From a virus: a DNA stretch of 64,000 bases. The notes under the pieces are model-generated. The model had not been told where the DNA came from and did no database searches. It worked only from the letters and a program-made list of their open reading frames with translations. Below are positions 1,173-24,865 of the stretch, in pieces. Each line of letters opens with the position of its first letter. Positions within the stretch are counted from its first letter, which is position 1. Both the position numbers and the translations under genes were made by a program. The DNA is taken from the IMG/VR virus record IMGVR_UViG_3300037117_000082, positions 51,041 to 115,040 of that record. One strand, 5' to 3'.

Positions 1173-1228
1173 GTCTCATCATGAGACTTCTGCCTGTCTC
1201 ATCAAGAGATTCAGTCTCATCATGAGCC
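1173..1228. promoter_or_regulatory. Three dyad repeats (TCTC-N5-GAGA), putative operators
   Basis: Three 15-base sites with dyad symmetry lie at 1173-1187 (GTCTCATCATGAGAC), 1196-1210 (GTCTCATCAAGAGAT) and 1214-1228 (GTCTCATCATGAGCC). They sit between the CHC2-finger gene (ends 1294) and the next leftward gene (starts 1149). A similar triple cluster follows the paralogous gene at 24389-24865. Likely binding sites for a dimeric protein; the binder is unknown. Confidence 0.6.
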
Positions 1229-1293
1229 TGCCGGTTGCTGCGAAACGCCCGTCTGGCCTGCATGTACTTGACGTGATCTTCCTCCGGTCGGTA

Positions 1294-1782
1294 TCACTTA
1301 GTGGTCCGGGAAGTGACCGCGCGCCGCGATCTGAAAGCCTCCGCGCGGGACACATGGACCGCGCCGGCCAACTCGACCAGCGCAGCGCCCGGCGGCAACT
1401 CCCCTCCCGGCGAGTCAAGCAGGGCAAGCGCCCGCAGCCGCACGTCGGCATGGCCGAGGTCGGACGTGAGCATTTCCCGCAGGGTCTCCTCGAAGTCGCG
1501 TGACTCGGCGGCGGAACGCGGCAGGCACGACGGATGGATGCCCAGCCCAATGAGCTTGTGCCGGATCTTCCGCTCGCTGCACCCCGCGTGGCAGAACCAG
1601 ACGAGCCGGTGCTTCCCCTCGCTGATCTTGAGCGAGCGCTTCGCGTCGTCGTGACCGGGGCAGTACGCCGTGAAGTACCAGCGGCCCGTGTCGGTGTCCA
1701 TGCGCAGATCTGCGGGCGCTCCCGGCACCTTGGGGCGCACGTGCTGGTGGAGGCACTCCCTGGACGGCACATCGCATGCCAC
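1294..1782 (-). CDS. CHC2-type zinc-finger protein (DNA primase-like finger), copy A
   Basis: 162 residues. A primase-like CHC2 finger is visible near residues 37-75: YCPGHDD, then a basic stretch, then WFCHAGC, giving the C-x2-H...C-x2-C pattern. No TOPRIM or polymerase domain follows; the C-terminal third ends in a helix-turn-helix-like segment (LAGAVHVSRAEAFRSRRAV). It is clearly paralogous to the protein at 24389-24865: both start M-x-C-D, share HVRP, the finger, and a similar end. Probably binds DNA or replication intermediates. A strong hairpin and a shared promoter-like box lie upstream. Confidence 0.7.
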   Translation of the reverse strand: MACDVPSRECLHQHVRPKVPGAPADLRMDTDTGRWYFTAYCPGHDDAKRSLKISEGKHRLVWFCHAGCSERKIRHKLIGLGIHPSCLPRSAAESRDFEETLREMLTSDLGHADVRLRALALLDSPGGELPPGAALVELAGAVHVSRAEAFRSRRAVTSRTTK

Positions 1783-1895
1783 GGCGCGCTCAGACGGCGA
1801 GAGGGATTGCGGGGCGCGGCTGATCGGGGAGGCTGTCGCCAGTTATGCTCTGCATAGGCTGCACCGGGTTTCTTAGCCGAGACGGTGACGGCTTA

Positions 1896-1938
1896 GGCCC
1901 GGCGAGTGTTTCCGCACTCGTTCGGGCCGCCGTTTTTT
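1896..1938 (+). terminator. Hairpin with T6 tract (rightward terminator / leftward 5' stem-loop)
   Basis: GGCCCG-g-CGAGTG pairs with CACTCG-tt-CGGGCC (1896-1928) and is followed on the plus strand by GCCGTTTTTTG. Read rightward this is a textbook intrinsic terminator. Read leftward it lies about 17 bases after the predicted start from the TAGACT box and would form a 5' stem-loop in the CHC2-finger mRNA. Confidence 0.65.
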
Positions 1939-1945
1939 GTTGTCC

Positions 1946-1961
1946 TCGAACAGTCTACCGG
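1946..1961 (-). promoter_or_regulatory. Candidate leftward promoter box shared with 52568-52583
   Basis: The 16-base string TCGAACAGTCTACCGG contains, on the minus strand, a TAGACT -10-like hexamer (1952-1957). Fifteen of its 16 bases recur at 52568-52583, upstream of the endonuclease VII-like gene. In both places a GC-rich hairpin follows within about 20 bases. No clear -35 is seen. Confidence 0.45.
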
Positions 1962-2036
1962 TTGTAAGCACCCCGACACGGTGTGTGCGTGCAGGTTTTC
2001 GACCCTCCGCCCGCTACCATCCACGCCGGGGGGCCG

Positions 2037-2228
2037 GGGAGACCCGATGGGGATCGGGTCTCCCGCCACAGAAGCCCCGGCTGGCTCGGCTCAGCAGCCG
2101 GGGCTTTCTGTGTGCGCACATGAAAAAGCGCCGCCGCCAGTGCGGGGGGCGCTGGCGGCGGCGCGGGGCAGCCTCCGGGAGCGGGTGGGCTTGAGAGGCC
2201 GCACGGGGCAGCCAGCCGGACGGCTGCC
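2037..2228. other. Gene-free stretch with serial perfect hairpins
   Basis: Within the 525-base gap 1783-2307 three further strong stems follow the hairpin at 1896: a 12-bp stem with a GGGG loop (2037-2064), a 13-bp stem GCGCCGCCGCCAG (2128-2164) and GGCAGCC/GGCTGCC (2207-2228); a terminator-like stem at 2073-2109 lies among them. No supported gene is present. The stretch may insulate transcription units or encode a structured RNA. Confidence 0.5.
2073..2109 (+). terminator. Intrinsic terminator-like hairpin
   Basis: AGCCCCGGCTG (2073-2083) pairs perfectly with CAGCCGGGGCT (2095-2105) and is followed by TTTCTG. The upstream rightward transcript it would end is not evident. Confidence 0.6.
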
Positions 2229-2295
2229 GTTGCCGAGAGTAGCGCTCCCCTTACCGCTCACGGTGTTGCCGCAGGACAGGGCGCGTGTCGGGCGG

Positions 2296-2301
2296 TACGG
2301 T
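2296..2301 (+). promoter_or_regulatory. -10 element of a leaderless promoter
   Basis: TACGGT lies exactly 6 bases before the ATG at 2308 and no ribosome-binding site precedes that ATG. The spacing predicts transcription starting at or next to the A of the start codon. Confidence 0.5.
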
Positions 2302-2307
2302 GCTGGC

Positions 2308-2640
2308 ATGAGCCTCACGGAGCACGCCAGGCGCGAACTAGAGCTATGCGGCCAGTACGCCGAGGATCCCGCCTACTCGGAGTCCATCATCAAGGCCGTC
2401 GAGGCGTTCGCGTCCTACGGCCACTCGGGCGGTTCGGCCATGTGCGCCCGCGAGCAGCTTCATGCCCTGCTTGCCTTCCAGGCGCTGTCTCCGCTGACCG
2501 ACGATCCTGCCGAGTGGGTAGATCAGTCCGAGGTCAGCGGAAGCCCGATGTGGCAGAACAAGCGTGACCCGGCCGTGTTCAGCACGGACGGCGACAAGAC
2601 GTGGTACTCGCTGGATGACAGGCAGCCCGAGTCGGCCTAG
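2308..2640 (+). CDS. Conserved actinophage protein of unknown function
   Basis: 110 residues from the ATG at 2308. The middle (KAVEAFASYGHSGGSA) is a pattern I recognise from a widespread family of small actinophage proteins; no catalytic motif is evident and the function is unknown. The start is chosen because it has a -10 hexamer 6 bases upstream, implying a leaderless message. It is the first gene to the right of the hairpin-rich stretch. Confidence 0.75.
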   Translation: MSLTEHARRELELCGQYAEDPAYSESIIKAVEAFASYGHSGGSAMCAREQLHALLAFQALSPLTDDPAEWVDQSEVSGSPMWQNKRDPAVFSTDGDKTWYSLDDRQPESA

Positions 2641-2719
2641 CCGCTTCCATGCCCCGCGTGTCCGCTACCGCCAGTTGCCGCGTGAACGCAGACCGCTAGA
2701 AATTTAATTAGCCCGGCTG

Positions 2720-2725
2720 TACGGT
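2720..2725 (+). promoter_or_regulatory. Candidate -10 (TACGGT)
   Basis: TACGGT inside GTACGGTGCT, a 10-base string also found at the leaderless promoter of the gene at 2308. The message would have a ~90-base leader containing AGTGA-N6-TCACT and an AGCCCGGC/GCCGGGCT dyad before the ATG at 2821. No good -35. Confidence 0.35.
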
Positions 2726-2820
2726 GCTAAGTGACGCTAATCACTGAACCACCAGTACGCCGGGCTTGGTCACTAATCGTAGCCCCGCCCGCGTGCTCAC
2801 GGCAAGCGGGAGGGGCAGTC

Positions 2821-3060
2821 ATGAACGTAGATCGGCCGCGCTTACGGGATGACATCGACGGGGACGTGCGGGCGCTGGACGACCTGTCTTACCACTGGGG
2901 GCCGTTCTGGTCCTTCTCCGTCAGGTACGGCCGCGAGGGCCCCGTCTGGAAAGCCACCCCCGCAGACGACAGCACGCCCATGACGGCAGTCAGCGCGGAA
3001 CTCCTGCGGTCCATGCTGAGAGGGTCCGCGGAAAGGAACAGGGCGCCCCGTCATGGCTGA
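2821..3060 (+). CDS. Hypothetical small protein
   Basis: 79 residues from the ATG at 2821, chosen over an upstream GTG because GGGAGGGG lies 6 bases before it. Tryptophan/tyrosine-rich centre (YHWGPFWSFSVRYG). Stop overlaps the next start by 8 bases. Function unknown. Confidence 0.6.
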   Translation: MNVDRPRLRDDIDGDVRALDDLSYHWGPFWSFSVRYGREGPVWKATPADDSTPMTAVSAELLRSMLRGSAERNRAPRHG

Positions 3061-3313
3061 GTGGCTGATGGACCGCCTAGCCGCGCTGTATGGCGCCGAG
3101 TACGACCTGATCGCCACCGCTGCCGGGCTCGCCGCGGTACCTCACGAGACGGGCCGGGAGACGCTGAGAGCGCATTCCCCTCTGGTGCTGGCCGTGCTGC
3201 TCGGGCAGGCCGCAGCCGGGAAGGCGCACGGCGAGCCCGCGCTGGAGCGCTGCCACCGGGCGCACGGGCGCGTACAGGGCGCGCATGCGGCGAGAGAGGC
3301 GCGCCGTGGCTGA
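3053..3313 (+). CDS. Hypothetical alanine-rich small protein
   Basis: 86 residues, alanine-rich and helical, no recognisable motif. Overlaps both neighbours (8 bases each), so it belongs to a three-gene cluster 2821-3548. Function unknown. Confidence 0.5.
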   Translation: MAEWLMDRLAALYGAEYDLIATAAGLAAVPHETGRETLRAHSPLVLAVLLGQAAAGKAHGEPALERCHRAHGRVQGAHAAREARRG

Positions 3314-3548
3314 GCGGCTCGAATCCACGAGCGACACCTGCGACCGGCTCGGCGGGGCTCACGATCACTGGAGTTTCTGGTTCGCCGGCGAGTTCTACGC
3401 TGCACGGACTGGCGACCTGACGCCAGGCGAGCACCGGCACGGGGTGATGGCCCCGCTGTCGGCCGCGGACCCGGACGAGCTGTCCGCGATGGTCACGGCG
3501 CAGGACGAGCCTGCCGCGGATGCCGAGCAGTTCGCCTGGGAAACCTAG
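3306..3548 (+). CDS. Hypothetical small protein
   Basis: 80 residues from a GTG at 3306 with AGAGAGG 7 bases upstream; an ATG at 3285 has no such site. Centre contains HWSFWFAGEFYAARTGDLTPG, similar in composition to the YHWGPFWSFSVRYG stretch of the gene at 2821, so the two may be distant relatives. Ends at a long hairpin. Function unknown. Confidence 0.55.
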   Translation: MAERLESTSDTCDRLGGAHDHWSFWFAGEFYAARTGDLTPGEHRHGVMAPLSAADPDELSAMVTAQDEPAADAEQFAWET

Positions 3549-3599
3549 AGACCGGCTGCGGCGGCCGGGTTCCCCCCGTACCCGGCTGCCGCAGTCTCT
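3547..3599 (+). terminator. Long hairpin after the 2821-3548 cluster
   Basis: AGAGAC, CTGCGGC and CCGGGT pair in order with ACCCGG, GCCGCAG and CTCT across a short C-rich loop. It begins at the stop codon of the preceding gene. There is no T-run, so termination is inferred from the stem. Confidence 0.55.
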
Positions 3600-3603
3600 A
3601 AGT

Positions 3604-3691
3604 GATCACGGCGGGCGCGCAAGGCATCGGCCAACTTCGACCCCCGAAGAAACCGGCCAGCTTATTAAGGGTTGCGTGGCCCGCCGTGATC
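3604..3691 (+). ncRNA. Candidate structured RNA element
   Basis: A closing 13-bp helix (GATCACGGCGGGC 3604-3616 with GCCCGCCGTGATC 3679-3691) encloses a GGCC/GGCC helix, which encloses CTTCG-ACCCC-CGAAG. The nested helices in an 88-base non-coding stretch look like a folded RNA or a protein-bound DNA cruciform. It has no open frame of its own and lies about 80 bases upstream of the promoter for the gene at 3823. Confidence 0.4.
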
Positions 3692-3746
3692 TCCCCTCCT
3701 GCTTGTCACACCGGGAGCGTAGCGTTGTTCCTGTGGCTCTTGCATG

Positions 3747-3775
3747 TTTGCTCTCCGTAGCAGGGCCGTTACGGT
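3747..3775 (+). promoter_or_regulatory. Candidate promoter for the gene at 3823
   Basis: TTTGCT (3747-3752) and TACGGT (3770-3775) are 17 bases apart. TACGGT is also the -10 used at 2296 and 2720. The transcript would carry a ~45-base leader with AAGGAG and GGGGGAAGGG before the ATG. Confidence 0.5.
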
Positions 3776-3822
3776 AAGTTAGGTTCCCTGTCAAGGAGAC
3801 ACGCGGGGGAAGGGTACGGAAG

Positions 3823-4032
3823 ATGCGCTTGCGGCCACGGGGGAAGATGGCATTGATCGCCGCACTGTCGGCCGATCTGGCGGCGAGCCGTGAGCGCGAG
3901 GGCAAACTCACCGAGAGGCTTGCGTGGTACCGCGTGGCAGTCGAGGGCGGCACGACGCCACTGCGGCTGCTGGAAGGCGGGGCGGTTCAGGCGCCCCTGC
4001 GCTCCCCGTTACGGGTGGCGCGCATCCCCTGA
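3823..4032 (+). CDS. Short coiled-coil-like basic protein
   Basis: 69 residues; residues 10-40 look like an amphipathic helix (AALSADLAASREREGKLTERLAWYR), of the type seen in small phage DNA-binding or bZIP-like proteins. Purine-rich upstream sequence offers a weak ribosome-binding site. It converges on and overlaps the repressor gene by 46 bases. Function unknown. Confidence 0.5.
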   Translation: MRLRPRGKMALIAALSADLAASREREGKLTERLAWYRVAVEGGTTPLRLLEGGAVQAPLRSPLRVARIP

Positions 4033-4340
4033 ATGACGGCGATCACGACCCGGCGTTCCTCGTCGTCTAGCTCGGGCAACTCGGTCGCGACCTCGCGTGG
4101 CTCCCGGATCACGGGCTCGGCGCCGGCCAGGACGCGCCGCGCCGAGTCAGGTTCCCAGCCGAGCGCGAGTTCGACATCCGCGAGCGTGACCGCGCCGACA
4201 GGGCGACCGGTCTCCAGCTTGCCGAGCGTCCGCGCCGTCACCCCTGACACGGCGGCCAGGGCCTTGCGGTCCCGGTAGCCGAGCTTCACCCTGCGCGCTA
4301 TCACGTAGCTGGCAAGGCGTCCCCAGTCCTCAAGAGGCAT
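3987..4340 (-). CDS. XRE-family helix-turn-helix regulator (repressor candidate)
   Basis: 117 residues. Residues ~17-65 form a lambda-repressor-type HTH: RRVKLGYRDRKALAAVSGVTARTLGKLETG, with VTARTLGKLE as recognition helix. The acidic C-terminal part (ELPELDDEERRVVIAVIQGM) looks like a dimerisation or regulatory tail. It is divergent from a second HTH gene at 4483, the arrangement of a CI/Cro switch. The CATAGT hexamer 6 bases before the ATG points to a leaderless message. Confidence 0.75.
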   Translation of the reverse strand: MPLEDWGRLASYVIARRVKLGYRDRKALAAVSGVTARTLGKLETGRPVGAVTLADVELALGWEPDSARRVLAGAEPVIREPREVATELPELDDEERRVVIAVIQGMRATRNGERRGA

Positions 4341-4346
4341 GACGCC

Positions 4347-4352
4347 ACTATG
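4347..4352 (-). promoter_or_regulatory. -10 of leftward repressor promoter (leaderless)
   Basis: On the minus strand CATAGT is followed by 6 bases and then ATG at 4340. No ribosome-binding site is present. No good -35 found. Confidence 0.45.
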
Positions 4353-4447
4353 CCGGAAGGGTTCGGAAGAATCCAGCGTGTCCGCATAACTTACGCCCGC
4401 ATCCGGTCACGCCACGGTCACCAAAGAGGAAACGGTGCGCGTTTAGT

Positions 4448-4476
4448 TTGACTTTGCTTCCACTTCGCTGCATCCT
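4448..4476 (+). promoter_or_regulatory. Rightward promoter of the Cro-like gene (leaderless)
   Basis: TTGACT (4448-4453) and CATCCT (4471-4476) are separated by exactly 17 bases, and the ATG at 4483 follows 6 bases after the -10. This is the best-formed promoter of the early region and probably drives the operon from 4483 onward. The 4341-4482 gap must hold the operators of the switch. Confidence 0.6.
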
Positions 4477-4482
4477 GATGAC

Positions 4483-4740
4483 ATGGCAAACGGACGACCG
4501 CGCGGACCAGCAATCAAGGGCTCCGGCCTCCGCGAGCGCCGCGTTCAGCTCGGGCTCAGGAAGACCGAGCTGGCGGCGCGCTGCGGGGTCTCGGCCCGTT
4601 ACATCGCGGACCTGGAAAAGGAGCGCTACTCCCCGAGTATCGAGGCACTGCACCGGCTCGCCGGCGTGCTTGAGATGCCCGTGACGAGCCTCATGCGTGA
4701 CCCGGAAAGCGATCCGATCACGGCCGGGAACGCCGCGTGA
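4483..4740 (+). CDS. XRE-family helix-turn-helix regulator (Cro-like)
   Basis: 85 residues; the HTH spans ~17-67 (LRERRVQLGLRKTELAARCGVSARYIADLEKERYSPSIEALHRLA), a canonical XRE/Cro fold with almost no other domain. First gene of the long rightward operon and divergent from the repressor at 3987-4340; by analogy with other temperate phages it may set the lytic choice. N-terminal 12 residues are basic. Confidence 0.8.
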   Translation: MANGRPRGPAIKGSGLRERRVQLGLRKTELAARCGVSARYIADLEKERYSPSIEALHRLAGVLEMPVTSLMRDPESDPITAGNAA

Positions 4741-4772
4741 CCAAGGAGAGCAACCGAGCCTGAGACGTGAAC

Positions 4773-4798
4773 GGGGCGCCAGTGCTAGCTGACGCCCC
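4773..4798 (+). terminator. Hairpin after the Cro-like gene
   Basis: GGGGCG-c-CAG pairs with CTG-a-CGCCCC around TGCTAG. No T-run; it may attenuate or process the transcript rather than stop it, since the operon continues. Confidence 0.4.
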
Positions 4799-4837
4799 GG
4801 AAAGAACCGCAGGACCACGATACATGAAGGGACCGCA

Positions 4838-5152
4838 ATGCGTACCAAAACCACCCTTGCCGCCGATGGGCGCGAGGCGAGCATCCTCAGCCCGAAGGCC
4901 GTACTGGGCCCGATCGTGCGCCTCTCCAAGCACCGCGCGTCCAAGCCGGGGCACCACCACATGGAGCGGTCGCAGCGGTCCGTCAGCGGCAACACGGCGC
5001 GGGCGCTCACCAGCGTGCGGCGTAGCACCGGCAAGAAGCGCGCAGGCCAGCGCGGGGCGCTCGGCGCGGTCCCGCAGCACAAGCGGCCGGCCGTCTACAA
5101 GACCGACGCCCGGCGCGCCCGTGAGGCAGCAGCAGACCGGCAGGCGTCATGA
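4838..5152 (+). CDS. Basic hypothetical protein
   Basis: 104 residues, very rich in R, K and H (RLSKHRASKPGHHHMERSQRSVSG), so probably nucleic-acid binding. GAAGGGA lies 6 bases before the ATG. Overlaps the next gene by 4 bases. Function unknown. Confidence 0.6.
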   Translation: MRTKTTLAADGREASILSPKAVLGPIVRLSKHRASKPGHHHMERSQRSVSGNTARALTSVRRSTGKKRAGQRGALGAVPQHKRPAVYKTDARRAREAAADRQAS

Positions 5153-5385
5153 CCTCCCTTACCGGGAGCGGCACCGTCACCCTGGCCATGCCCCAGCCGG
5201 TAGCGATCGGGTTCTACTGCCCGGCCTGTGGTGCCTGCGGATCGAGTGAGACCCACCGCGTCGACTGCCCGCGCCGCCCGCGCGGCTACTGCGGCTGCTG
5301 GCAGGTCACCGGCAGGCAGCCTGCTAACGGGGTCCACTGCTACATCTGCGACCGGCCTGCTGATCCTGCGCAGGTAGCGGCGTGA
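5149..5385 (+). CDS. Zinc-binding small protein
   Basis: 78 residues with CPACGAC, DCPRRPRGYCGCW and HCYICD: four closely spaced cysteine pairs typical of a zinc ribbon. 4-base overlaps on both sides. Function unknown. Confidence 0.65.
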   Translation: MTSLTGSGTVTLAMPQPVAIGFYCPACGACGSSETHRVDCPRRPRGYCGCWQVTGRQPANGVHCYICDRPADPAQVAA

Positions 5386-5666
5386 GCGCCGCAGCGATGG
5401 AGGCCGAGGCTGGCCGCCGGGTGGATGACCTGATCGCCTTCGAGGCTGACTACCGCTCCCGGATGCGCGCCTACCTGCAAGGACTGCTGCGCGACCTGGA
5501 CAGGCGCGGCGAGTTGGCAGGCGATAAATGCGCCGATCCGGTCACGGTCAGCCGCGATGACTTGCGTACGTTCTTCACGGCTCTGGGCGGTAGCCAGTTC
5601 CTGCGCCTCGGCTGTGCGGCCGGGCAGGCAGAGCAGCGGTTGCGGGCCGCTGGCGGTGCGTCATGA
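5382..5666 (+). CDS. Hypothetical helical protein
   Basis: 94 residues from a GTG overlapping the preceding stop (GTGA). Mostly helical, acidic/arginine mixed (FEADYRSRMRAYLQGLLRDLDRRGEL). No recognised domain. Confidence 0.55.
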   Translation: MSAAAMEAEAGRRVDDLIAFEADYRSRMRAYLQGLLRDLDRRGELAGDKCADPVTVSRDDLRTFFTALGGSQFLRLGCAAGQAEQRLRAAGGAS

Positions 5667-7891: not shown

Positions 7892-8196
7892 CCGTGGCAA
7901 CCTTCCGGTCAGCGTGGACCGACCCGGAGTTCGTGCGGCTGGCGTCCTACCGCTCATGGTGGGACGCCGGGACGTCAACTCGCGGGCCGCTGGCTGACGG
8001 GGAGAACCCGTGGCTGACGGACGAGCACCCGGAAGTCACGACCGTGAACGCGGCACCGGTGCCCCGGCCAAGGCTGGCGCGGGCCGATGAGTACGCGAGC
8101 CAGCGGTGCAGCTGTACGCATATTGCTTACGCCGATGAGTACGACGGCGGCTTCTGCCGGTTCTGCAAGTGCTCGGAGCACGGGGCGGCGTCATGA
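7888..8196 (+). CDS. Hypothetical protein with C-terminal zinc motif
   Basis: 102 residues from a GTG overlapping the ERF stop. The end reads CSCTHIAYADEYDGGFCRFCKC, a likely zinc-binding C-x-C...C-x2-C-x-C module. Position right after erf suggests an accessory role; function unknown. Confidence 0.6.
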   Translation: MTVATFRSAWTDPEFVRLASYRSWWDAGTSTRGPLADGENPWLTDEHPEVTTVNAAPVPRPRLARADEYASQRCSCTHIAYADEYDGGFCRFCKCSEHGAAS

Positions 8197-8441
8197 GCCT
8201 CTACTCAGTGCGCCCGTGCAGCACGAGGACCGACCCGGCACCGGGCGTGCAGCTGATGCGCCAGGGGCAGAACCTGAACCGGCTGAGTCCCGCCGAGGCG
8301 CGCGAGCTAGGCGCCGAACTGATCCTCGCCGCCGGCGCGAGCGAGGCACAGTGGCCCGCATCCGAAGCCGAAGCCGAGGAAGACGAGGACACGGCCATGC
8401 TCGGCGCGGGCTGGTCCGACATGTACGGGTCACCGGGATGA
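8193..8441 (+). CDS. Hypothetical small acidic protein
   Basis: 82 residues; residues 55-72 are strongly acidic (SEAEAEEDEDTAML). ATGA overlap with the previous gene fixes the start at 8193. Function unknown. Confidence 0.55.
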   Translation: MSLYSVRPCSTRTDPAPGVQLMRQGQNLNRLSPAEARELGAELILAAGASEAQWPASEAEAEEDEDTAMLGAGWSDMYGSPG

Positions 8442-11187: not shown

Positions 11188-12114
11188 ATGGCTGACAAGA
11201 CTGGCATTTCCTGGACGGATGCCACATGGAACCCGACGACCGGCTGCGACCGCGTTTCACCGGGCTGCGATAACTGCTATGCGATGACGCTGGCGAAGCG
11301 GCTAAAGGGCATGGGATCGGCGAAGTACCAGACTGATGGCCACCCGTTTACCAGCGGTCCCGGATTCGGCGTGGCGGTCCACCCTGACGCACTTGACCAG
11401 CCGCTCCGCTGGAAACGGCCACGGCGCATCTTCGTCAACAGCATGTCGGACCTGTTCCACAAGGACATTCCCGAGGGCTTCATTGCCCGCGTGTTCGCGG
11501 TCATGGCCGGGGCGCCGCAGCACACATTCCAGGTGCTCACCAAGCGCCACGGGCGCATGCGGTCGCTTGTGGGCAGCGGCCAGTTCCGCGACGCCGTGGC
11601 CGATGCCCTGGCGCCGCTGATCACGGACGGCATACCGGGCTTCCGCTCAGTCCCGCCGTGGCCGCTGCCGAATGTCTGGCTGGGCGTAAGCGCTGAGGAT
11701 CAGCACTGGGCAGACATCCGCATACCAGCGCTCAACCGGACGCCGGCTGCCGTGCGGTTCGTCTCAGCCGAGCCGCTGCTAGGGCCGATCAAACTGCACC
11801 GGGGACACGGGCACTGCCCGGTCCATGACTTCCCCGGCGGCTTCTGTTCCAGCCCGTGCGGCGATCTGATCCTGCCTGACTGGCTGATCATTGGCGGCGA
11901 GTCCGGACCCGGCGCCCGGCCTATGCAAATCGACTGGGCGCGCGATCTGGTGAGGCAGTCCCGCGCGGCGGGAATCGCGCCGTTCGTCAAGCAGCTCGGC
12001 GCGGTGACGGGCATTCCCCTTGGTGCCGGTTCTCACGGCGCCGACTGGGACGCATGGCCTGCCGACTTGCGCGTCCGCGAGTTCCCTGCTGCCGCGCAAC
12101 TGGCCGCGTCATGA
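11188..12114 (+). CDS. DUF5131 (phage Gp37/Gp68) family protein
   Basis: 308 residues. The N-terminus has the family signature ISWTDATWNPTTGC...SPGCDNCYA, placing three cysteines (C20, C27, C30) as a probable iron-sulfur site; later motifs are FVNSMSDLFH, FQVLTKR, LGVSAEDQ, RFVSAEPLLG and IIGGESGPGARP. The fold has been described as radical-SAM-like, but a biochemical role is not established to my knowledge. Common in phages and next to defence genes. No gap after the 44-residue peptide gene. Confidence 0.85.
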   Translation: MADKTGISWTDATWNPTTGCDRVSPGCDNCYAMTLAKRLKGMGSAKYQTDGHPFTSGPGFGVAVHPDALDQPLRWKRPRRIFVNSMSDLFHKDIPEGFIARVFAVMAGAPQHTFQVLTKRHGRMRSLVGSGQFRDAVADALAPLITDGIPGFRSVPPWPLPNVWLGVSAEDQHWADIRIPALNRTPAAVRFVSAEPLLGPIKLHRGHGHCPVHDFPGGFCSSPCGDLILPDWLIIGGESGPGARPMQIDWARDLVRQSRAAGIAPFVKQLGAVTGIPLGAGSHGADWDAWPADLRVREFPAAAQLAAS

Positions 12115-13775: not shown

Positions 13776-13984
13776 TAGACGACACCCGCCGCGCCGTCCT
13801 GCTCGGCTACCTCCAGCACGCCCCCTACGCGAGAACCGGGGACCTGGCCAGGCTCATCCCGGGCTGCAGCTGGGAGTCCGCCCACGACGAGATGACGCGG
13901 CTGGAGCTTGCCGGCGCGGTGTGGATGATGCGCACCGGGGGCGGCCCCTGGCACTGGGCCGCAGCAAACGGGAGCAAGCCGTGA
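13772..13984 (+). CDS. Small winged-helix-like protein
   Basis: 70 residues from a GTG overlapping the preceding stop. VLLGYLQHAPYARTGDLARLI..SWESAHDEMTRLELAGAVWMMR reads as a winged helix. Directly precedes the DNA methyltransferase, which it might regulate; this is inference. Confidence 0.6.
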   Translation: MIDDTRRAVLLGYLQHAPYARTGDLARLIPGCSWESAHDEMTRLELAGAVWMMRTGGGPWHWAAANGSKP

Positions 13985-14736
13985 GCGCGCCGTACTTCGA
14001 TGACGGGCAGGTGCAACTCTGGCTCGGAGACTGCCGGGAGATCCTGCCCGCGCTGGGCGTGAAGGCTGACCTGTGCGTAGCGGATCCGTCGTACGGGGAG
14101 ACGTCGCTGGAATGGGATCGCTGGCCAGAGGGCTGGCTCGAGGCCGCTGCCGGGGTCACGTCCTCGCTCTGGTGCTTCGGCTCGCTGCGGATGTACCTCG
14201 AGCACGGCGGCGAGTTCAAGAGCGCCAAATGGAAGCTTTCGCAGGACGTCATCTGGGAGAAGCACAACGGGTCGGGGTTCGCTGACGACCGCTTTAAGCG
14301 CGTCCACGAGCAAGTGAGCCACTGGTTCCGGGGGCGCTGGGATGGCATTTATCACAAGGCACCGACAACTCCTGATGCAATCCGGCACCAGATGCGGCGC
14401 AAGGCGCGGCCGACGCACACCGGGGACATCGGCGCCGCTAGCTACCTCAGCGAGGATGGCGGCCCGCGCTTGATGCGCTCCGTGATCTACATGCGATCCA
14501 TGCACGGGCGCGCACTGCACCCGACCGAGAAGCCGGTCGGCTTGCTTGACCCGATCCTGCAATACGCCTGCCGTCCGGGCGGACTGGTGGTCGACCCCTT
14601 CGCCGGCAGCGGCAGCACCCTGGACGCGGCCCGGTGCTCTGGCAGGCGCGCAATCGGCATCGAGGCGGACGAGCGGTACCTCGAGCTGGCAGCGCGCCGC
14701 CTCTCGCAAGCTGATCTTTTCGGCGGTGCCGCATGA
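13981..14736 (+). CDS. Site-specific DNA methyltransferase (N4-cytosine/N6-adenine type)
   Basis: 251 residues from a GTG at 13981. Motif IV is DPSY (residues 35-38), a variant of DPPY; the SAM-binding motif FAGSGSTLDAA is C-terminal, after HPTEKPVGLLDPIL, giving the beta-class order. No recognition extension beyond the ~100-residue middle. Probably marks phage DNA against host restriction. No cognate nuclease is seen nearby. Confidence 0.85.
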   Translation: MSAPYFDDGQVQLWLGDCREILPALGVKADLCVADPSYGETSLEWDRWPEGWLEAAAGVTSSLWCFGSLRMYLEHGGEFKSAKWKLSQDVIWEKHNGSGFADDRFKRVHEQVSHWFRGRWDGIYHKAPTTPDAIRHQMRRKARPTHTGDIGAASYLSEDGGPRLMRSVIYMRSMHGRALHPTEKPVGLLDPILQYACRPGGLVVDPFAGSGSTLDAARCSGRRAIGIEADERYLELAARRLSQADLFGGAA

Positions 14737-16612: not shown

Positions 16613-16956
16613 ACGCAATCGAGGCCGGCAAGCTACTGGGGCTCATGGCCCAGTACGACTACCGGGAGACCGCGCCATCGGACGTAGCGGCGTGGCTCCG
16701 CGTCATCGGCGATCTTCCCTACGCCGACTGCGAGACCGCCGTCATCGCGTACTACCGCTCGTGCCGGGACCGCATGATGCCGTCCGACGTCCGGGACCGC
16801 GTGACCGACATCCGGCGCGAGCGGCTGAAGAACGCCCCGGCGCTGGAGCCGCCGCGCGAGGTAGCCGACGACCCGGCCAAGTACGTCGAGTGGCTGGCAG
16901 CCGAGCGCAAGAAGATCGCGGACGGCCCGCAGGCGCTCAAGGCGGTGACCTCGTGA
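16609..16956 (+). CDS. Helicase-loader-like phage protein
   Basis: 115 residues from a GTG overlapping the initiator stop. The sequence LLGLMAQYDYRETAPSDVAAWLRVIGDL..DCETAVIAYYRSCRDRMMPSDVRDRVTDIR resembles small proteins that sit between initiator and DnaB in actinophages and may help load the helicase. No ATPase motif. Confidence 0.6.
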   Translation: MNAIEAGKLLGLMAQYDYRETAPSDVAAWLRVIGDLPYADCETAVIAYYRSCRDRMMPSDVRDRVTDIRRERLKNAPALEPPREVADDPAKYVEWLAAERKKIADGPQALKAVTS

Positions 16957-18308
16957 GCGAGGACTTCCTGGCGCCGGCCGAGGCCGTCATCGCCGCGGAA
17001 CGGGCCGTGCTCGGGATCATCATCGGGTCGCGGCATGCGGCCGAGGAATCGGGTGACGCGCTGGTCCCGGACGATTTCTGGCTGCCGAGGCACCAGCTGA
17101 TTTTCGAGGCAGTGCAGGCGCTGGCCGAGGGCGACGGACCGGTTGAGCCTGCCGCGGTGATGGCGGTGCTGACCCAGCGCAGGCAGGTCGCGCAGGCAGG
17201 CGGCGGCGTCTTCCTCGCCGAGCTTGGCGAGATGCGGGTGCTGGCCCAGTCGCTGGGCTGGTACCTCCGCGAGGTGCTGAAGGACTCCGGGCGCCGCAAG
17301 ATGGGGCGCCTGTCGATCCAGCTTGCGCAGATGGCGTCCAGCCCCAGCTACGACCCGGACCTGGACCCGGACACGGCGCGGAAGCTGCTCGAGGACGCGC
17401 TGGCGGCCCGCGGTGAAAGCCGGGCGCTGACATCGGGTGACGTGTTCGTGAACGCCCTGCGGCGGCTCGAGGAGCCGGAGGACAAGAGCGGGGCGATATC
17501 CCCGCCGTGGGATGACCTGCGGGACCTGATCCCGGTGTTCCGGCCCGGCCAGCTCATCACCGTAGGGGCCCGGCCGGGTGCCGGCAAGAGCGTCATCGCC
17601 AGTGACGTGCTGCGGCATGTCGGGCTGAAGCTGCGGCTGCCGTCGATCTTGTTCTCGATGGAGATGTCCGAGGCCGAGGTCACCGACCGGATGCTGTCCG
17701 CGGAGTCCTCGGTGTCGCTGTCCCGGATCCAGGCCCGCGAGCTGGACGACCACGACTGGAACCGGATCGCGCGGCTGGGCGACAGGTTCGCCGAGGGCGC
17801 GTTCGTGCTGGATGACACCCCGAACATCTCCCTGGCGCACATCCGCTCGAGGCTGCGGGGGATGGCCCGGCGCGACCCGGCGCGGATAGCGATCGTGGAC
17901 TACCTCCAGCTGGTGAAGTCGCCCGGGTCCGCGGAGTCCCGGGAGCGGGAAGTGGCCGCGCTGGCATCCGGGCTGAAGAACCTCGCCCGCGAGTTCGCTA
18001 TCCCGGTCCTGCTGCTGGCACAGCTGAACCGCGGCCCGGAGGCGAGGCACGACAAGAAGCCCACGAAGGCCGACCTGCGCGAGTCCGGGGCGATCGAGAA
18101 CGACTCCGATGTCGTGATCCTGATCCACCGGCCGGACATGGGTGACCCGGAGTGCGCGCGCACCGGGGAGGCGGACCTGATCGTGGACAAGAACCGGGCC
18201 GGGCCGACCGGGACGCGCACGGTGCTTTTCCAGGGCCACTACGGGCGCTTCTCCGGCATGGCGTGGACGCCGACTTCATCCCTCGGTGATGACCGGAGGT
18301 CGGCATGA
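16953..18308 (+). CDS. dnaB: Replicative DNA helicase DnaB
   Basis: 451 residues from a GTG at 16953. N-terminal domain (~10-110) plus linker, then the RecA-like core: Walker A GARPGAGKS (205-213), ILFSMEMSEAEV, Walker B IAIVDYLQL, LLAQLNR and the C-terminal SGAIENDSDVVILIHRP and NRAGPTG. Typical size for DnaB. Overlaps the loader-like gene by 4 bases. Unwinds the fork for phage replication. Confidence 0.93.
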   Translation: MSEDFLAPAEAVIAAERAVLGIIIGSRHAAEESGDALVPDDFWLPRHQLIFEAVQALAEGDGPVEPAAVMAVLTQRRQVAQAGGGVFLAELGEMRVLAQSLGWYLREVLKDSGRRKMGRLSIQLAQMASSPSYDPDLDPDTARKLLEDALAARGESRALTSGDVFVNALRRLEEPEDKSGAISPPWDDLRDLIPVFRPGQLITVGARPGAGKSVIASDVLRHVGLKLRLPSILFSMEMSEAEVTDRMLSAESSVSLSRIQARELDDHDWNRIARLGDRFAEGAFVLDDTPNISLAHIRSRLRGMARRDPARIAIVDYLQLVKSPGSAESREREVAALASGLKNLAREFAIPVLLLAQLNRGPEARHDKKPTKADLRESGAIENDSDVVILIHRPDMGDPECARTGEADLIVDKNRAGPTGTRTVLFQGHYGRFSGMAWTPTSSLGDDRRSA

Positions 18309-19315: not shown

Positions 19316-19341
19316 TTATCCCGAGAGGAAACGCAGGCAAA

Positions 19342-20973: not shown

Positions 20974-21392
20974 CCGCCGGGCCAGAGGTCCACGTCGACT
21001 GGCGGATGACGCCCGCCGAGTGGGACGAGTTGCGGTCGGCGGTCAAGCACAGCGATTCGGACTACTGCATGCGGCTGGACGCCGAGGGGAAACTCGCTGC
21101 CGGCGCTGCACTGCCGGTCCCGCTTCCCTTCGGCGAGAACCCGCCTGCTCACGACTGCGGATGCGGGCCGGACGGAGCCTGCGAGACGCACCTGGACCGG
21201 AGCGAGCCGGAGCGGCAGATTGCGGCATCCTCGCTCGCGGCCACCATCGCCGGCTGGCGCGCTGAGGCCGCGGGCTGGCGGACCTACGCCGACAGGTTCA
21301 TCGCCGACCAGATCCGTTACGCCGGGTTCCTGACCCGCGCCGAGACGTACGACGCCTGCGCTGATGCGCTTGAGGCTGAGGTGAACCCGTGA
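20970..21392 (+). CDS. Hypothetical protein
   Basis: 140 residues; one CGCGPDGAC cluster and a helical, tryptophan-containing second half. 4-base overlaps. Function unknown. Confidence 0.5.
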   Translation: MTAGPEVHVDWRMTPAEWDELRSAVKHSDSDYCMRLDAEGKLAAGAALPVPLPFGENPPAHDCGCGPDGACETHLDRSEPERQIAASSLAATIAGWRAEAAGWRTYADRFIADQIRYAGFLTRAETYDACADALEAEVNP

Positions 21393-21757
21393 CCGCCCGC
21401 GAGGATTTCCGCGCAGCAGTCCGCTCTGCTGCCACCTACGCCGCAGATGAGGGAACTCAGGGCTGGCTGCTGACGGAAGCCCAGTTCGCGGCGATCGACG
21501 CTGCGGGGGACGAGTACCGGGCTGGTGCCCTGCTCTCCCTTGCTGCCGATCTTGACCGCAGGGCCAACGTCCCGTCATCACTCAGCCAGCGGGTCCGCGA
21601 TGCGTTCCGGGCGGCAGCCCTGATGGCCCGTCGCGCTGCGGAGGGCAACCGTACGGACGCGGAGAGTGCCGCCCCGGTGTTCCTGGACGCTGCTGGGCTT
21701 AAAACGGCTCTCAGCGCTTCGGCCGCGGATGACTGCATGGAAGCGGGCCCGGAATGA
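21389..21757 (+). CDS. Hypothetical alanine-rich helical protein
   Basis: 122 residues from a GTG overlapping the previous stop. Helical, with SAATYAADEGTQGWLLTEAQFAAIDAAGDEY; a related sequence appears in the gene at 23083, suggesting paralogy. Function unknown. Confidence 0.5.
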   Translation: MTAREDFRAAVRSAATYAADEGTQGWLLTEAQFAAIDAAGDEYRAGALLSLAADLDRRANVPSSLSQRVRDAFRAAALMARRAAEGNRTDAESAAPVFLDAAGLKTALSASAADDCMEAGPE

Positions 21758-22176
21758 CCGCTGACCTCGCCGAGCGCGCCATGGGCCACCTTGCCGAGCG
21801 CATGGTGCCCGTCGCCGCGGAACTGGCCTTCGCCGTCCGGGAGCGGGACGTCAACGGCATAGCGGAGTTCCTGGCCCCGTACGGCCCGCAGGAAATCTAC
21901 GGGCTGCTGATCGTGACGGCGGCAATGGTGGACATCGACCGGACCACTGATGACCTGCTGTCGTGGGTCTCGTGGGACGAGCGCTTCGAGCCGCCGTGCC
22001 GTGATGCCGCGCCGAAGCGGGCGCGCAACGACGGCCGGGTGCCTGCGGAGTGCGGCACCTATGCGGCGGCGAGACGTCACCAGCAGCGGGGGGAAGCGCT
22101 GGACCAGCCGTGCAAGGACGCGGCTAACGAGTACATGCGGGACTGGCGGGCTGGCAAGAGGGGGAATGCGGCATGA
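21754..22176 (+). CDS. Phage protein with C-terminal CGTY-type motif
   Basis: 140 residues. The C-terminus CGTYAAARRHQQRGEALDQPCKDAANEYMRDW belongs to a pattern I recognise in actinophage and actinobacterial proteins, where C and H positions may bind zinc. The N-terminal half is helical. Overlaps the methyltransferase gene by 4 bases. Confidence 0.6.
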   Translation: MTADLAERAMGHLAERMVPVAAELAFAVRERDVNGIAEFLAPYGPQEIYGLLIVTAAMVDIDRTTDDLLSWVSWDERFEPPCRDAAPKRARNDGRVPAECGTYAAARRHQQRGEALDQPCKDAANEYMRDWRAGKRGNAA

Positions 22177-22838
22177 GGCCGCGATTGCTTGACCTGTTCT
22201 GCGGAGCTGGCGGCGCGACCGCGGGCTACTACCGGGCAGGCTTCGACGTGACCGGGGTTGATCTTGCGCCCCAGCCGAACTACCCGTTCCGGTTTATCCG
22301 CGCCGACGCGATGACGTTCCCTCTCGGCGGCTTTGATGCCATCCACGCAAGCCCGCCGTGCCAGCGCAAGTCCCGCATGACGAACTGCCGCCCTGGCGTT
22401 GCCGCTACCTACCCGGACCTGATCGGCCCGGTCCGCGACCGGCTGCGCGCATGGGGCGGCCTGTACGTGATCGAGAATGTGGAAGGCTCCGGGCTGCCTG
22501 GCCAGGATGATCTGCTCGGTGCCCACGGCCTGATGCTCTGCGGCCTCATGTTCGGCCTTGAGCTCTACCGGCACCGCTGGTTCGAGACGAGCTCGCCGGT
22601 CCCGGTCCCCGGTCACCCGCGGCACCTGATCCCGGCGTCACGGGCAGGCCACTGGAAGCCCGGCACGATCATGTCCGTGGAGGGCCATTGCGCCCCGATC
22701 GCCGTTGCAAGGGCCGCAATGGGCGGCGTGGACTGGATGACCCGCGACGAGCTCGCGGAGTCGATTCCGCCTGCCTATACCGAGCACCTTGGCCGGCAGA
22801 TGCTCGCGGCCATCACGAGAGCAAGGGAAGTCGCATGA
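22173..22838 (+). CDS. C5-cytosine DNA methyltransferase-like protein (compact)
   Basis: 221 residues. Motif I LDLFCGAGGATAGYYRAGF, motif IV ASPPCQR with the catalytic C63, and motif VI VIENVEGS are clear; the C-terminus ESIPPAYTEHLGRQML matches motif X. The target recognition domain is very short, so the protein is smaller than typical restriction-type enzymes. Could modify phage DNA or act without a nuclease. Confidence 0.82.
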   Translation: MRPRLLDLFCGAGGATAGYYRAGFDVTGVDLAPQPNYPFRFIRADAMTFPLGGFDAIHASPPCQRKSRMTNCRPGVAATYPDLIGPVRDRLRAWGGLYVIENVEGSGLPGQDDLLGAHGLMLCGLMFGLELYRHRWFETSSPVPVPGHPRHLIPASRAGHWKPGTIMSVEGHCAPIAVARAAMGGVDWMTRDELAESIPPAYTEHLGRQMLAAITRAREVA

Positions 22839-23086
22839 CCGCGCTTGCACCCGTCCCGGTAACCCCGGCGAAAGTTAGCGTCAGCGAGACCCACTGGGGC
22901 GTGCGGTTCCAGAGCCCCTACGGATTCAACATTGACGATCACGGCACTGACGAGGAAGCGGCGCGCAGGGGTGCTCTCGCGAAGCCGCAGCCACGCTGCA
23001 CGGTCACGCTGGTCAGGCACCGCGTGGATCATGCCGAGTGGCCGTGGGAGCCTGCGAGCGGTGCCGGGCTGGACGGTGCAGCATGA
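22835..23086 (+). CDS. Hypothetical protein
   Basis: 83 residues, beta-rich (VSVSETHWGVRFQSPYGFN); no cysteine cluster. ATG at 22835 overlaps the methyltransferase stop. Function unknown. Confidence 0.5.
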   Translation: MTALAPVPVTPAKVSVSETHWGVRFQSPYGFNIDDHGTDEEAARRGALAKPQPRCTVTLVRHRVDHAEWPWEPASGAGLDGAA

Positions 23087-23331
23087 CCGCACCGCATCCC
23101 GTCGCCGACGCCCTGACGCCCGCTGAGCGGTTCGAGGCTGCCGTCCGCGATGCAGTGCTTCCCAGGCTGCTGGCCCCGGGTGAGGACACCGGCCCGTACC
23201 TGCTGTGCGAGAGCCAGCTAGCTGACATCGGCGCCGCAGCTGACGAGTACGCGGCGGCGCTTGTGGAGCGGTGCGCGCGTACCCCCCGGAGCCAGGAAGA
23301 CCCGCTCCAGCCAAGGGGAGCCGCCTCGTGA
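23083..23331 (+). CDS. Hypothetical protein, possible paralogue of 21389
   Basis: 82 residues. ERFEAAVRDAVLPRLLAPGEDTGPYLLCESQLADIGAAADEYAAALVER resembles the gene at 21389 (AVRSAATYAADEGTQGWLLTEAQFAAIDAAGDEYRAG). Function unknown. Confidence 0.5.
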   Translation: MTAPHPVADALTPAERFEAAVRDAVLPRLLAPGEDTGPYLLCESQLADIGAAADEYAAALVERCARTPRSQEDPLQPRGAAS

Positions 23332-23543
23332 GCGCCCTGGACCCGGCGGACGGCATTGAGTGCATCTATCACGAGCGGGACAGGCGCTGCCATGAACCTG
23401 CGGTCTGGGTGATCCCGGCCACCTGGGCGCACCCCGCGTGGCCGTTCTGCGAGCGGCACGCCAAGCCCGGGTTCCACCCGCCGGACATGCACAAGCTGCT
23501 GCCCGGACGGATCACGCGCGCCATCAGGAGGCACCGGCAATGA
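23328..23543 (+). CDS. Small protein with C/H metal site
   Basis: 71 residues from a GTG overlapping the previous stop. GIECIYHERDRRCHEPAVW..CERHA offers three cysteines and several histidines. Function unknown. Confidence 0.5.
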   Translation: MSALDPADGIECIYHERDRRCHEPAVWVIPATWAHPAWPFCERHAKPGFHPPDMHKLLPGRITRAIRRHRQ

Positions 23544-23902
23544 CCGCCCGCGCCATGTACCGCGGCTACCACTCCGGCAGCGGCAAGCGAGCCGGCCAGG
23601 TCCGCCGCCTCCACGTCATCCGCGAGCACGGCCCGGCCGGCTGGGAACCCGGGAAGCAAACCCTCTGCGGCCAGCACGCCTGGGCATGCCGCCACTCGGA
23701 TCCGGTGATCATCTCCCCGCTGCCCGACCGCGCCCCGGACGGCCTGGCCTGGTGCCCGAAGTGCATCGGGCTTCTCGCCGAGCTGCTCGGGCTGCTCGGC
23801 GAGATCGCCGCCAGCCTCGCCGCCTGCGGCTCCTTCCTCGACGTCGCGATCGAGGCCCGGCACGACCTGCAGCGCGCAGTCCGCGCCGGGGCGGGCGACT
23901 GA
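23540..23902 (+). CDS. Phage protein with CxxC-type site
   Basis: 120 residues; TLCGQHAWACRHSD and WCPKCIGLLAELLGLL give a zinc-like four-cysteine pattern of a type seen in other actinophage early genes. Helical C-terminus. ATG 23540 overlaps the previous stop. Confidence 0.55.
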   Translation: MTARAMYRGYHSGSGKRAGQVRRLHVIREHGPAGWEPGKQTLCGQHAWACRHSDPVIISPLPDRAPDGLAWCPKCIGLLAELLGLLGEIAASLAACGSFLDVAIEARHDLQRAVRAGAGD

Positions 23903-24099
23903 TGGCCGTCGCTACTCCCTGCCAGACAAATGGGGCACAGTTCCACGTCAGCATCACGGAGACGGGCATCACGGCCACGGTTGACTTCAGCCGCGTGATC
24001 CCCTTGACCGAGGACGAGGCAGAAGCGCTGGACGGCACCCTGCACAACGTGCTTGAGCTTGCGCTGGCGCCGCTGTTCGCGCGGGGTGAGCCAGCGTGA
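23902..24099 (+). CDS. Hypothetical protein
   Basis: 65 residues from ATG 23902 (TGATG overlap). Beta-rich start (AQFHVSITETGITATVDF). Function unknown. Confidence 0.5.
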   Translation: MAVATPCQTNGAQFHVSITETGITATVDFSRVIPLTEDEAEALDGTLHNVLELALAPLFARGEPA

Positions 24100-24212
24100 A
24101 GCTCGCCGTCGCCTCCCTCCTCGCTGCTGCCCTTTACCTGGCTGTACGTATCTCCCGTCATCCCCGGGACCAGCCGTGCCCGGTGTGTGACAGGCCGGGG
24201 AGGTACCATTGA
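24096..24212 (+). CDS. 38-residue membrane peptide with CxxC
   Basis: GTG at 24096 overlaps the previous stop (GTGA); TGA at 24210-24212. A hydrophobic N-terminal segment (KLAVASLLAAALYLAVRIS) is followed by CPVCD. Last gene of the early operon before the leftward CHC2 unit. Evidence is coupling and a clear hydrophobic pattern. Confidence 0.45.
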   Translation: MKLAVASLLAAALYLAVRISRHPRDQPCPVCDRPGRYH

Positions 24213-24226
24213 TGCCCCCGTATCCC

Positions 24227-24317
24227 TTTCTCGTGGTGAGAAACTGGCGCCTGACCTGCACCAACATGTCCGGCCTGCGGCTTTCTCAGGGTGAGAGGAT
24301 TTCTCAGGGCGAGAAGG
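24227..24317. repeat. Three inverted repeats TTTCTC-N5-GAGA(A)
   Basis: Sites at 24227-24243 (TTTCTCGTGGTGAGAAA), 24282-24298 (TTTCTCAGGGTGAGAGG) and 24300-24317 (TTTCTCAGGGCGAGAAGG) share TCTC-N5-GAGA with the cluster at 1173-1228. They lie between the end of the early operon (24212) and the 3' end of the paralogous CHC2-finger gene (24389). Role as operators or stoperator-like sites is inferred. Confidence 0.5.
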
Positions 24318-24353
24318 CCAGCGATACGCCGCCAGCGCGCCTGCCTGCACGAC

Positions 24354-24383
24354 TTGACAAGCCTCACGATCAGGGTCTAGGTA
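24354..24383 (+). promoter_or_regulatory. Consensus-like promoter (TTGACA-N18-TAGGTA)
   Basis: TTGACA (24354-24359) is 18 bases from TAGGTA (24378-24383), pointing right, into the antisense of the CHC2-finger gene. The paralogous locus has TTGACG (1268) and TATCAC (1292) at the same spacing. This may drive an antisense RNA, or the TTGAC box may be a protein site. Confidence 0.4.
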
Positions 24384-24388
24384 CTGGG

Positions 24389-24865
24389 TCATCGGTTCTT
24401 GCCCCGCGCTCTGTACGCCTCGGCCAGACTCACGCCGCAGTCCTCCGCGAGACTCCGCAACTCCTCGCCGCCGGGCAGGTCGTAGCCGTAGCCGCGCAGG
24501 TAGGCAGCGAGCCGGAGCACCTTGTGAGGGCTGGAGTCCTTGCCGAACGTGAGCCAGTTCATGACTTCCTCGAACCGCGCCGCGTCATCGGCCGGCCTGC
24601 GCAGGCAGCCAGCGGGAACGCCCGACCGGATGAGCGCGTTCCGCGTCTCCGCCTGCGCGGCTTCCTTGCCGAGTCGTTTCTGGCAGGCGTGGCAGCACCA
24701 GACGGCGCGGCCAGTGGCGCCGATGCTCACGGACAGGCTGTGCGTCCGGTCGGCATGGCAGGGTGCCAGTGCCCGGTAGCTGTCGCCAGCGTCGCTGATC
24801 TTGGGCGCATTGAGCCACGGGCGGACGTGATCGTGGATGCAGGCCCGGCCCGCATCGCATCCCAT
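24389..24865 (-). CDS. CHC2-type zinc-finger protein, copy B
   Basis: 158 residues, paralogue of the gene at 1294-1782: same MxCD start, HDHVRPW, a finger (CHADRTHSLSVSIGATGRAVWCCHACQ) and the C-terminal helix-turn-helix-like end SLAEDCGVSLAEAYRARG. The finger keeps C, H, C and C. No catalytic primase domain. Lies leftward between a rightward operon and a hairpin. Likely function: DNA binding or primase/helicase interaction, inferred from the finger type. Confidence 0.7.
   Translation of the reverse strand: MGCDAGRACIHDHVRPWLNAPKISDAGDSYRALAPCHADRTHSLSVSIGATGRAVWCCHACQKRLGKEAAQAETRNALIRSGVPAGCLRRPADDAARFEEVMNWLTFGKDSSPHKVLRLAAYLRGYGYDLPGGEELRSLAEDCGVSLAEAYRARGKNR

What the first reader, a model, noticed from the sequence alone, without database searches (positions are those of the whole stretch)
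1173..24865. Two paralogous CHC2-finger genes, each with the same downstream triple repeat and TTGAC box
The leftward genes at 1294-1782 and 24389-24865 encode related proteins with a primase-type CHC2 finger but no primase domain. In both loci three TCTC-N5-GAGA dyad sites lie just past the 3' end of the gene (1173-1228; 24227-24317), and TTGAC with an 18-base spaced hexamer sits between the sites and the stop codon. Duplication of gene plus sites implies a functional unit: a finger protein with its cognate sites, perhaps controlling replication or transcription. The half-site GTCTCAT also appears near 37618. I know of no described phage module of this form. Caveat: locus B sites lie in convergent rather than upstream position, so the sites may not be operators of the same gene.
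Basis: partly seen in the sequence, partly recalled or inferred. Interest (0 to 1): 0.65.

Follow-up and report, generated by a model that had tools for sequence, protein, structure and literature searches.

The report
Phage finger gene with linked DNA sites
This bacterial virus carries two related genes for a small DNA-binding protein, each followed by three mirror-image DNA sites, and relatives in two other viruses show the same layout with changed site letters, which suggests a protein and its binding sites that evolve together.

Summary
The 115-kb record is a temperate actinophage. Genes 1294-1782 and 24389-24865 are paralogues (36% identity, E=1e-18) with a weak primase-type CHC2 ribbon and a predicted C-terminal helix-turn-helix; no Toprim_4 or Prim-Pol domain was found in the record. 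An unbiased scan for triple 17-bp dyads ranks exactly these two loci first and second in 115 kb, above all 40 shuffles. Two further loci repeat the layout with different half-sites. One is a homologue in an unrelated 10.6-kb contig (AGTGCM). The other is a very diverged homologue (26% identity) in a close relative's genome, at the position of locus B (NGTCTC, against TTTCTC in B). All four have CTTGAC between dyads and stop codon; the 18-bp-spaced hexamer is in three. No further dyads occur elsewhere in the phage, and the half-site at 37619 is chance. Most likely the finger/HTH protein binds the dyads beyond its own gene as dimers and acts locally, probably on transcription across that junction; a replication origin with its initiator is the main rival. 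Binding and function are inferred. Only four instances are known, three by sequence search and one by synteny.

The parts
1294..1782 (-). Locus A gene: 162-aa CHC2-type zinc ribbon (C41, H44, C64, C68) with predicted C-terminal HTH (helices 132-141 and 146-160)
   Evidence: AlphaFold2 model pLDDT 82
1172..1188 (.). Locus A dyad 1 AGTCTC-ATCAT-GAGACT
1195..1211 (.). Locus A dyad 2 TGTCTC-ATCAA-GAGATT
1213..1229 (.). Locus A dyad 3 AGTCTC-ATCAT-GAGCCT (one arm imperfect)
1267..1272 (+). Locus A CTTGAC box, 37 bp from dyad 3, conserved in all four loci
1292..1297 (+). TATCAC hexamer 18 bp after TTGACG; would be the -10 of a promoter antisense to the gene; overlaps the stop codon
   Evidence: sequence; equivalent in 3 of 4 loci
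24389..24865 (-). Locus B gene: 158-aa paralogue; ribbon ligands C36/H37, C58, C61; predicted HTH helices 133-143 and 147-154
   Evidence: model pLDDT 74
24227..24243 (.). Locus B dyad 1 TTTCTC-GTGGT-GAGAAA
24282..24298 (.). Locus B dyad 2 TTTCTC-AGGGT-GAGAGG
24300..24316 (.). Locus B dyad 3 TTTCTC-AGGGC-GAGAAG
24353..24358 (+). Locus B CTTGAC box, 36 bp from dyad 3
24378..24383 (+). TAGGTA hexamer 18 bp after TTGACA
   Evidence: sequence
892..1149 (-). 85-aa gene of unknown function downstream of locus A dyads, first of three leftward genes (892-1149, 599-895, 345-602); present only at locus A
   Evidence: no family
25010..25267 (-). 85-aa leftward gene upstream of locus B gene, no family match

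Best explanation
Each locus is a small, fast-evolving specificity module: a DNA-binding protein (primase-type zinc ribbon plus C-terminal HTH, no primase domain) and, directly beyond its stop codon, three 17-bp dyads that the same protein binds as a dimer. Half-site centres are 11 bp apart, one helical turn, which suits a dimeric HTH. The sites act locally, not genome-wide. Bound protein most likely controls transcription across the junction at the 3' end of its own gene, either by acting on the antisense TTGAC promoter-like element or by blocking RNA polymerase there, so as to regulate its own expression and that of the neighbouring operon. Shown: homology, layout, co-divergence of sites, absence of other sites. 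Inferred: binding by this protein, dimerisation, transcriptional role.
For: Two paralogues in one phage and homologues in two other contigs all have three same-type dyads 64-83 bp past the stop. In each of G000, the L008 contig and relative G002 the triple at this gene is the top or joint-top triple in the contig and exceeds every shuffle (0/40, 0/200, 0/100). Half-sites differ between loci (AGTCTC, TTTCTC, AGTGCM, NGTCTC), so the binder is locus-specific, and the finger/HTH protein is the only gene shared by all four. The two loci with GTCTC half-sites (A and G002) share 'SRA' at the start of the presumed recognition helix although the proteins are only 23% identical; B (TTCTC) has 'SLA' and L008 (GTGC) has 'GRR'. 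No further sites in the phage. The G002 protein is 26% identical to its syntenic partner B, where the median orthologue is 78%, as expected for a swapped specificity module. GTCAAG/CTTGAC is the only hexamer shared by the four stop-to-dyad spacers (13/5000 shuffles; 236/20000 random genomic quadruples).
Against: No binding data. Only four instances, and the helix-to-site correlation rests on n=4, read by eye. The G002 homologue was recognised by synteny and a weak pairwise match (E=7e-5 against three sequences), not by the first profile search. The 18-bp-spaced -10-like hexamer is absent in G002 and its sixth base is not T in any locus, so the promoter reading is weak; the consensus scan calls none there. 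Sites at the 3' end of a gene, between convergent genes in two loci, are unusual for operators. Zinc ligands are partly rearranged in B and G002. Fold searches gave no significant match.
Confidence: 0.45

Rival explanations
1. Replication origin with its initiator: the finger/HTH protein binds the three dyads as iterons and recruits the phage DnaB helicase or host primase; the TTGAC element is a convergent promoter at the origin, as pO is at ori-lambda.
For: The ribbon belongs to the primase type. The phage encodes a DnaB helicase (16953-18308) but no Toprim_4 or Prim-Pol domain was found. Initiator genes linked to dyad iterons are known: lambda O needs a 19-bp imperfect inverted repeat (PMC7466680), and a promoter pO convergent with pR acts at ori-lambda (PMC3985674). 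Site regions are relatively AT-rich in A, B and L008. Sites are local only.
Against: Two such loci in one genome and one in its relative; no AT-rich unwinding region in G002 and only 50% AT at best in B and L008; cumulative GC skew has no turning point at the loci; spacing between dyads is irregular (23/18, 55/18, 45/24, 19/32).
Confidence: 0.22
2. The dyads are operators of some other regulator (for example the leftward gene 25010-25267, the Xre-type 3987-4340 or a host protein) and the finger gene is only a neighbour.
For: Other regulators are encoded in the phage. Locus A dyads lie just upstream of gene 892-1149 in an operator-like place.
Against: Three half-site types in several contexts, two of them within one phage; no other gene is shared by all four loci; a single outside regulator would not track them.
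Confidence: 0.15
3. Partition-like or recombination site (centromere, or resolvase-type res site with three dyads) bound by the finger protein.
For: Sites immediately 3' of the gene for their binding protein, as P1 parS lies next to parB (general knowledge); three dyads as in resolvase res sites (general knowledge).
Against: The phage has a tyrosine integrase and excisionase-like gene elsewhere (37382-39367); the proteins have no recombinase or ParA/ParB similarity.
Confidence: 0.08
4. RNA hairpins: the dyads act in transcripts as stem-loops (terminator or protein-binding hairpins).
For: RNA of locus A and L008 sites folds better than shuffles (z -5.1 and -4.1).
Against: Locus B does not (z -1.2 and -0.4), G002 only slightly (z -2.2 and -1.5). 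In A and G002 the best fold pairs sites with each other instead of forming three hairpins. An unpaired arm change occurs at an inner position in L008. No T-runs follow.
Confidence: 0.05
5. Chance, or remnants of a duplication without function.
For: Small number of instances; the family is rare.
Against: Independent top ranking in three contigs with different site sequences.
Confidence: 0.05

Closest known systems
Phage lambda O protein with ori-lambda iterons
   Same: DNA-binding protein and cluster of about 19-bp dyad sites linked in cis, convergent promoter nearby (PMC7466680, PMC3985674); specificity differs between related phages (general knowledge)
   Different: Lambda iterons lie inside the O gene with an AT-rich region; O has no CHC2 ribbon; here three 17-bp dyads lie past the stop codon and there are two loci in one phage
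Phage lambda-type repressor/operator clusters (OR, OL)
   Same: Three 17-bp dyads for dimeric HTH proteins, specificity exchanged between relatives (general knowledge)
   Different: Lambda operators lie at divergent promoters upstream of the repressor gene; here sites lie past the 3' end, and the protein has a zinc ribbon
Cluster A mycobacteriophage L5-type repressor and stoperators
   Same: Sites in intergenic spaces, proposed to halt elongation (PMC9283540)
   Different: Stoperators are 13-bp asymmetric, bound by a monomer, more than twenty per genome; here symmetric, three per locus, none elsewhere
DnaG-type primase zinc ribbon (Pfam PF01807; PHROG 360, 6088)
   Same: Ribbon with C-x2-H ... 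C-x2/3-C and the W-x-C-H core
   Different: No primase domain, below the Pfam cut-off, ligands rearranged in B and G002, C-terminal HTH instead
P2 Ogr / P4 Delta zinc-finger activators
   Same: Small phage zinc-finger DNA-binding protein acting at dyad sites (general knowledge)
   Different: Different finger, no HTH, sites upstream of late promoters across the genome (general knowledge)

Membership tests
DnaG-type primase | CHC2 zinc ribbon over the curated cut-off | tested here: not met
   PF01807 19.3 bits in B against cut-off 24.9, A not listed; PHROG primase hits 6e-6 and 5e-4
DnaG-type primase | Toprim or prim-pol catalytic domain in the gene or elsewhere in the phage | tested here: not met
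   Proteins end after about 160 aa; PF13662 and PF09250 no match in the record; other Toprim models not tried
Repressor with operator cluster | HTH DNA-binding domain | tested here: inconclusive
   Predicted C-terminal helix-turn-helix in two models; no family match, no significant fold match
Repressor with operator cluster | Operators overlap a promoter that the protein controls | tested here: inconclusive
   TTGAC-N18-TA element 36-37 bp from the dyads in 3 of 4 loci; not called by consensus scan
Repressor with operator cluster | Protein binds the dyads | not testable with these tools
   needs gel shift
Lambda O/ori-type replicator | Dyad iterons linked to the initiator gene | tested here: met
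   Three dyads past each gene in 4 of 4 loci; that the gene is an initiator is not shown
Lambda O/ori-type replicator | AT-rich unwinding region beside the iterons | tested here: inconclusive
   A 60% AT in 40 bp (99.9th percentile), L008 and B 50%, G002 45%
Lambda O/ori-type replicator | Supports autonomous replication | not testable with these tools
   needs plasmid assay
L5-type stoperator system | Many asymmetric sites spread over the genome | tested here: not met
   Sites are symmetric and confined to the two loci

The most novel reading that the evidence does not exclude
A previously undescribed phage protein family in which a primase zinc ribbon has been joined to an HTH and is inherited together with three cognate dyads and a CTTGAC box beyond its own 3' end, forming exchangeable specificity modules that set replication or transcription compatibility between related actinophages; one phage carries two modules of different specificity.
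Probability: 0.4. Interest if true: 0.7.

Novelty: new variant of a known kind. Interest (0 to 1): 0.5.

Why it matters
Protein and site pairs that diverge together decide which phages can coexist, repress or replicate in one cell. This one puts the sites beyond the gene's 3' end and uses a zinc ribbon normally found on primases, so it would show a primase part reused for sequence-specific control, with a built-in natural set of specificity variants for testing.

Tried and rejected
Searches for more relatives with each protein, their alignment and the conserved DNA box found only L008 among clear relatives; the other hits (L009, L010, and primase/helicases of Microbacterium, Arthrobacter and Curtobacterium phages) match the ribbon only. 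Two scans with the box pattern gave 16 and 86 stretches; only L008 has the gene and triple dyads. Apparent matches in Keziacharles14 and Satis are in the wrong frame or strand of the annotated genes and were dropped. Other high-scoring triples were examined: G002 (reverse complement) 86355 is a repeat inside a coding sequence; G011 22514 is an ordinary promoter region upstream of an HTH gene. Weaker dyads at window 3904 and G002 (reverse complement) 102492 and 103992 are at chance level or coding. The half-site at 37619 is chance. GC skew shows no origin signal. Rfam and ARAGORN found only one tRNA. Relatedness of the gene upstream of B (25010-25267) to the gene in the same place in G002 was suspected by eye and not supported.
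Full report
Setting. The window is positions 51041-115040 of a 115,040-base virus record. It is a temperate actinophage by gene content: a tyrosine integrase at 38147-39367 (identified from its sequence), an excisionase-like gene at 37382-37582 (PHROG 66), a DnaB helicase at 16953-18308, and a large terminase that resembles Streptomyces phage TurkishDelight at 49%. A simple gene caller places both finger genes as leftward interruptions in a long rightward early region.

The proteins. The two genes encode 162 and 158 aa that align end to end at 36% identity (E=1e-18). Both have a ribbon of the primase CHC2 type: in A C41, H44, C64, C68. The match is weak and in B the first ligand pair is rearranged to C36/H37. 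PF01807 finds these two genes and nothing else in the record, and no Toprim_4 or Prim-Pol domain was found. AlphaFold2 models of A (pLDDT 82) and B (pLDDT 74) both end in helix-turn-helix (A 132-141 and 146-160; B 133-143 and 147-154). Fold searches gave nothing significant; the best viral hit is a Toprim protein at E=0.03.

The sites. TCTC-N5-GAGA occurs five times in the 115 kb, all in the two loci. Since the motif was chosen after looking at the loci, I ran a scan that does not know it: all triples of 17-mers N6-N5-N6 within 110 bp, scored for shared half-sites. The 17-bp arm length was itself set from these loci. The two loci come first and second in the record (69.8, 64.1; third 51.8; best of 40 shuffled genomes 50.8).

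Independent loci. A homologue (41% identity) was found in IMG/VR contig 3300012349_000153 (L008). The same scan ranks first, of its 10.6 kb, a triple at 3903, 3922, 3954, directly past the stop of that gene, with another half-site (AGTGCM; 63.7; 0 of 200 shuffles). A close relative phage (G002, 113 kb, terminase 88% identical) gave no profile match, yet its joint-top triple (60.9; 0 of 100 shuffles) lies at the position of locus B, and beside it is a leftward gene for a diverged family member (26% identity to B; W-x-C-H core, C-x2-C, C-terminal HTH). Its half-site is NGTCTC. The median orthologue between the two phages is 78% identical, so this gene diverges far faster than its surroundings. 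The other joint-top triple of G002 is a coding repeat.

The box. The stop-to-dyad spacers are 64, 72, 64 and 83 bp. GTCAAG (CTTGAC on the other strand) is the only hexamer in all four, 37, 36, 36 and 30 bp from the nearest dyad (13 of 5000 shuffles share any hexamer; 236 of 20,000 random genomic quadruples). GCAGGC follows in three. TTGAC-N18-TA is present in A, B and L008 and absent in G002, so a promoter antisense to the gene is plausible but not a constant of the module.

Where the sites lie. In B and G002 they are between convergent genes; in A they are upstream of a leftward gene, and in L008 upstream of a gene in the same direction. No further sites exist in the phage. That argues for a local role.

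Why the finger protein is the likely binder. The site sequence is locus-specific, two types exist in one phage, and the finger gene is the only one shared by the four loci. Half-site centres are 11 bp apart, one helical turn, as for a dimeric HTH. A and G002, with GTCTC, share 'SRA' in the presumed recognition helix although the proteins are otherwise only 23% identical; B has SLA with TTCTC, L008 GRR with GTGC. This is four data points, read by eye.

Mechanism. Binding and function are inferred. I favour local control of transcription across the 3' junction (0.45). The replication-origin reading (0.22) is serious: the ribbon is of primase type, the phage has DnaB, and lambda has both dyad iterons linked to its initiator gene (PMC7466680) and a promoter convergent with pR at its origin (PMC3985674). 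Missing for it are an AT-rich region in all loci, a skew signal and regular spacing. RNA hairpins are unlikely, since only A and L008 fold clearly better than shuffles.

Comparison. L5 stoperators, the known case of repressor sites in intergenic spaces, are asymmetric and numerous (PMC9283540), unlike these. Literature searches for CHC2 fingers with regulatory roles returned nothing, in an open-access library only.

Limits. Four instances, one found by synteny. Metagenome contigs could not be searched at all. The two actinobacterial genome scans used short peptide patterns only and found nothing, so diverged members would be missed.

Noticed in passing
2308-2640: Gene beside locus A is a strong match to Tad3, an inhibitor of type I Thoeris defence (PF25185, 6e-33).
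   Followed up: no
1830-2200: Long non-coding stretch between the locus A gene and the Tad3 gene with several GC-rich hairpins, one followed by a T-run (about 1895-1935); possibly a small RNA or terminators. No Rfam match.
   Followed up: partly
25010-25267: Leftward 85-aa gene upstream of locus B gene; G002 has a different leftward gene in the same place. Both look by eye like ribbon-helix-helix proteins; BLAST gives no similarity. Repeats TGTTGTCAC lie upstream in the window.
   Followed up: partly
1858-1866 and 24931-24939: CGGTGCAGC occurs upstream of both finger genes on the coding strand; 11 copies in the record, so weak.
   Followed up: partly
8193-8441: Gene is a paralogue (70% over 54 aa) of a gene at record position 48255-48458, upstream of the window.
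   Followed up: no
11188-12114: DUF5131 protein (8e-84), with an N6/N4 DNA methylase at 13981-14736.
   Followed up: no
60443-60517: A tRNA-Met (CAT) gene carried by the phage.
   Followed up: no
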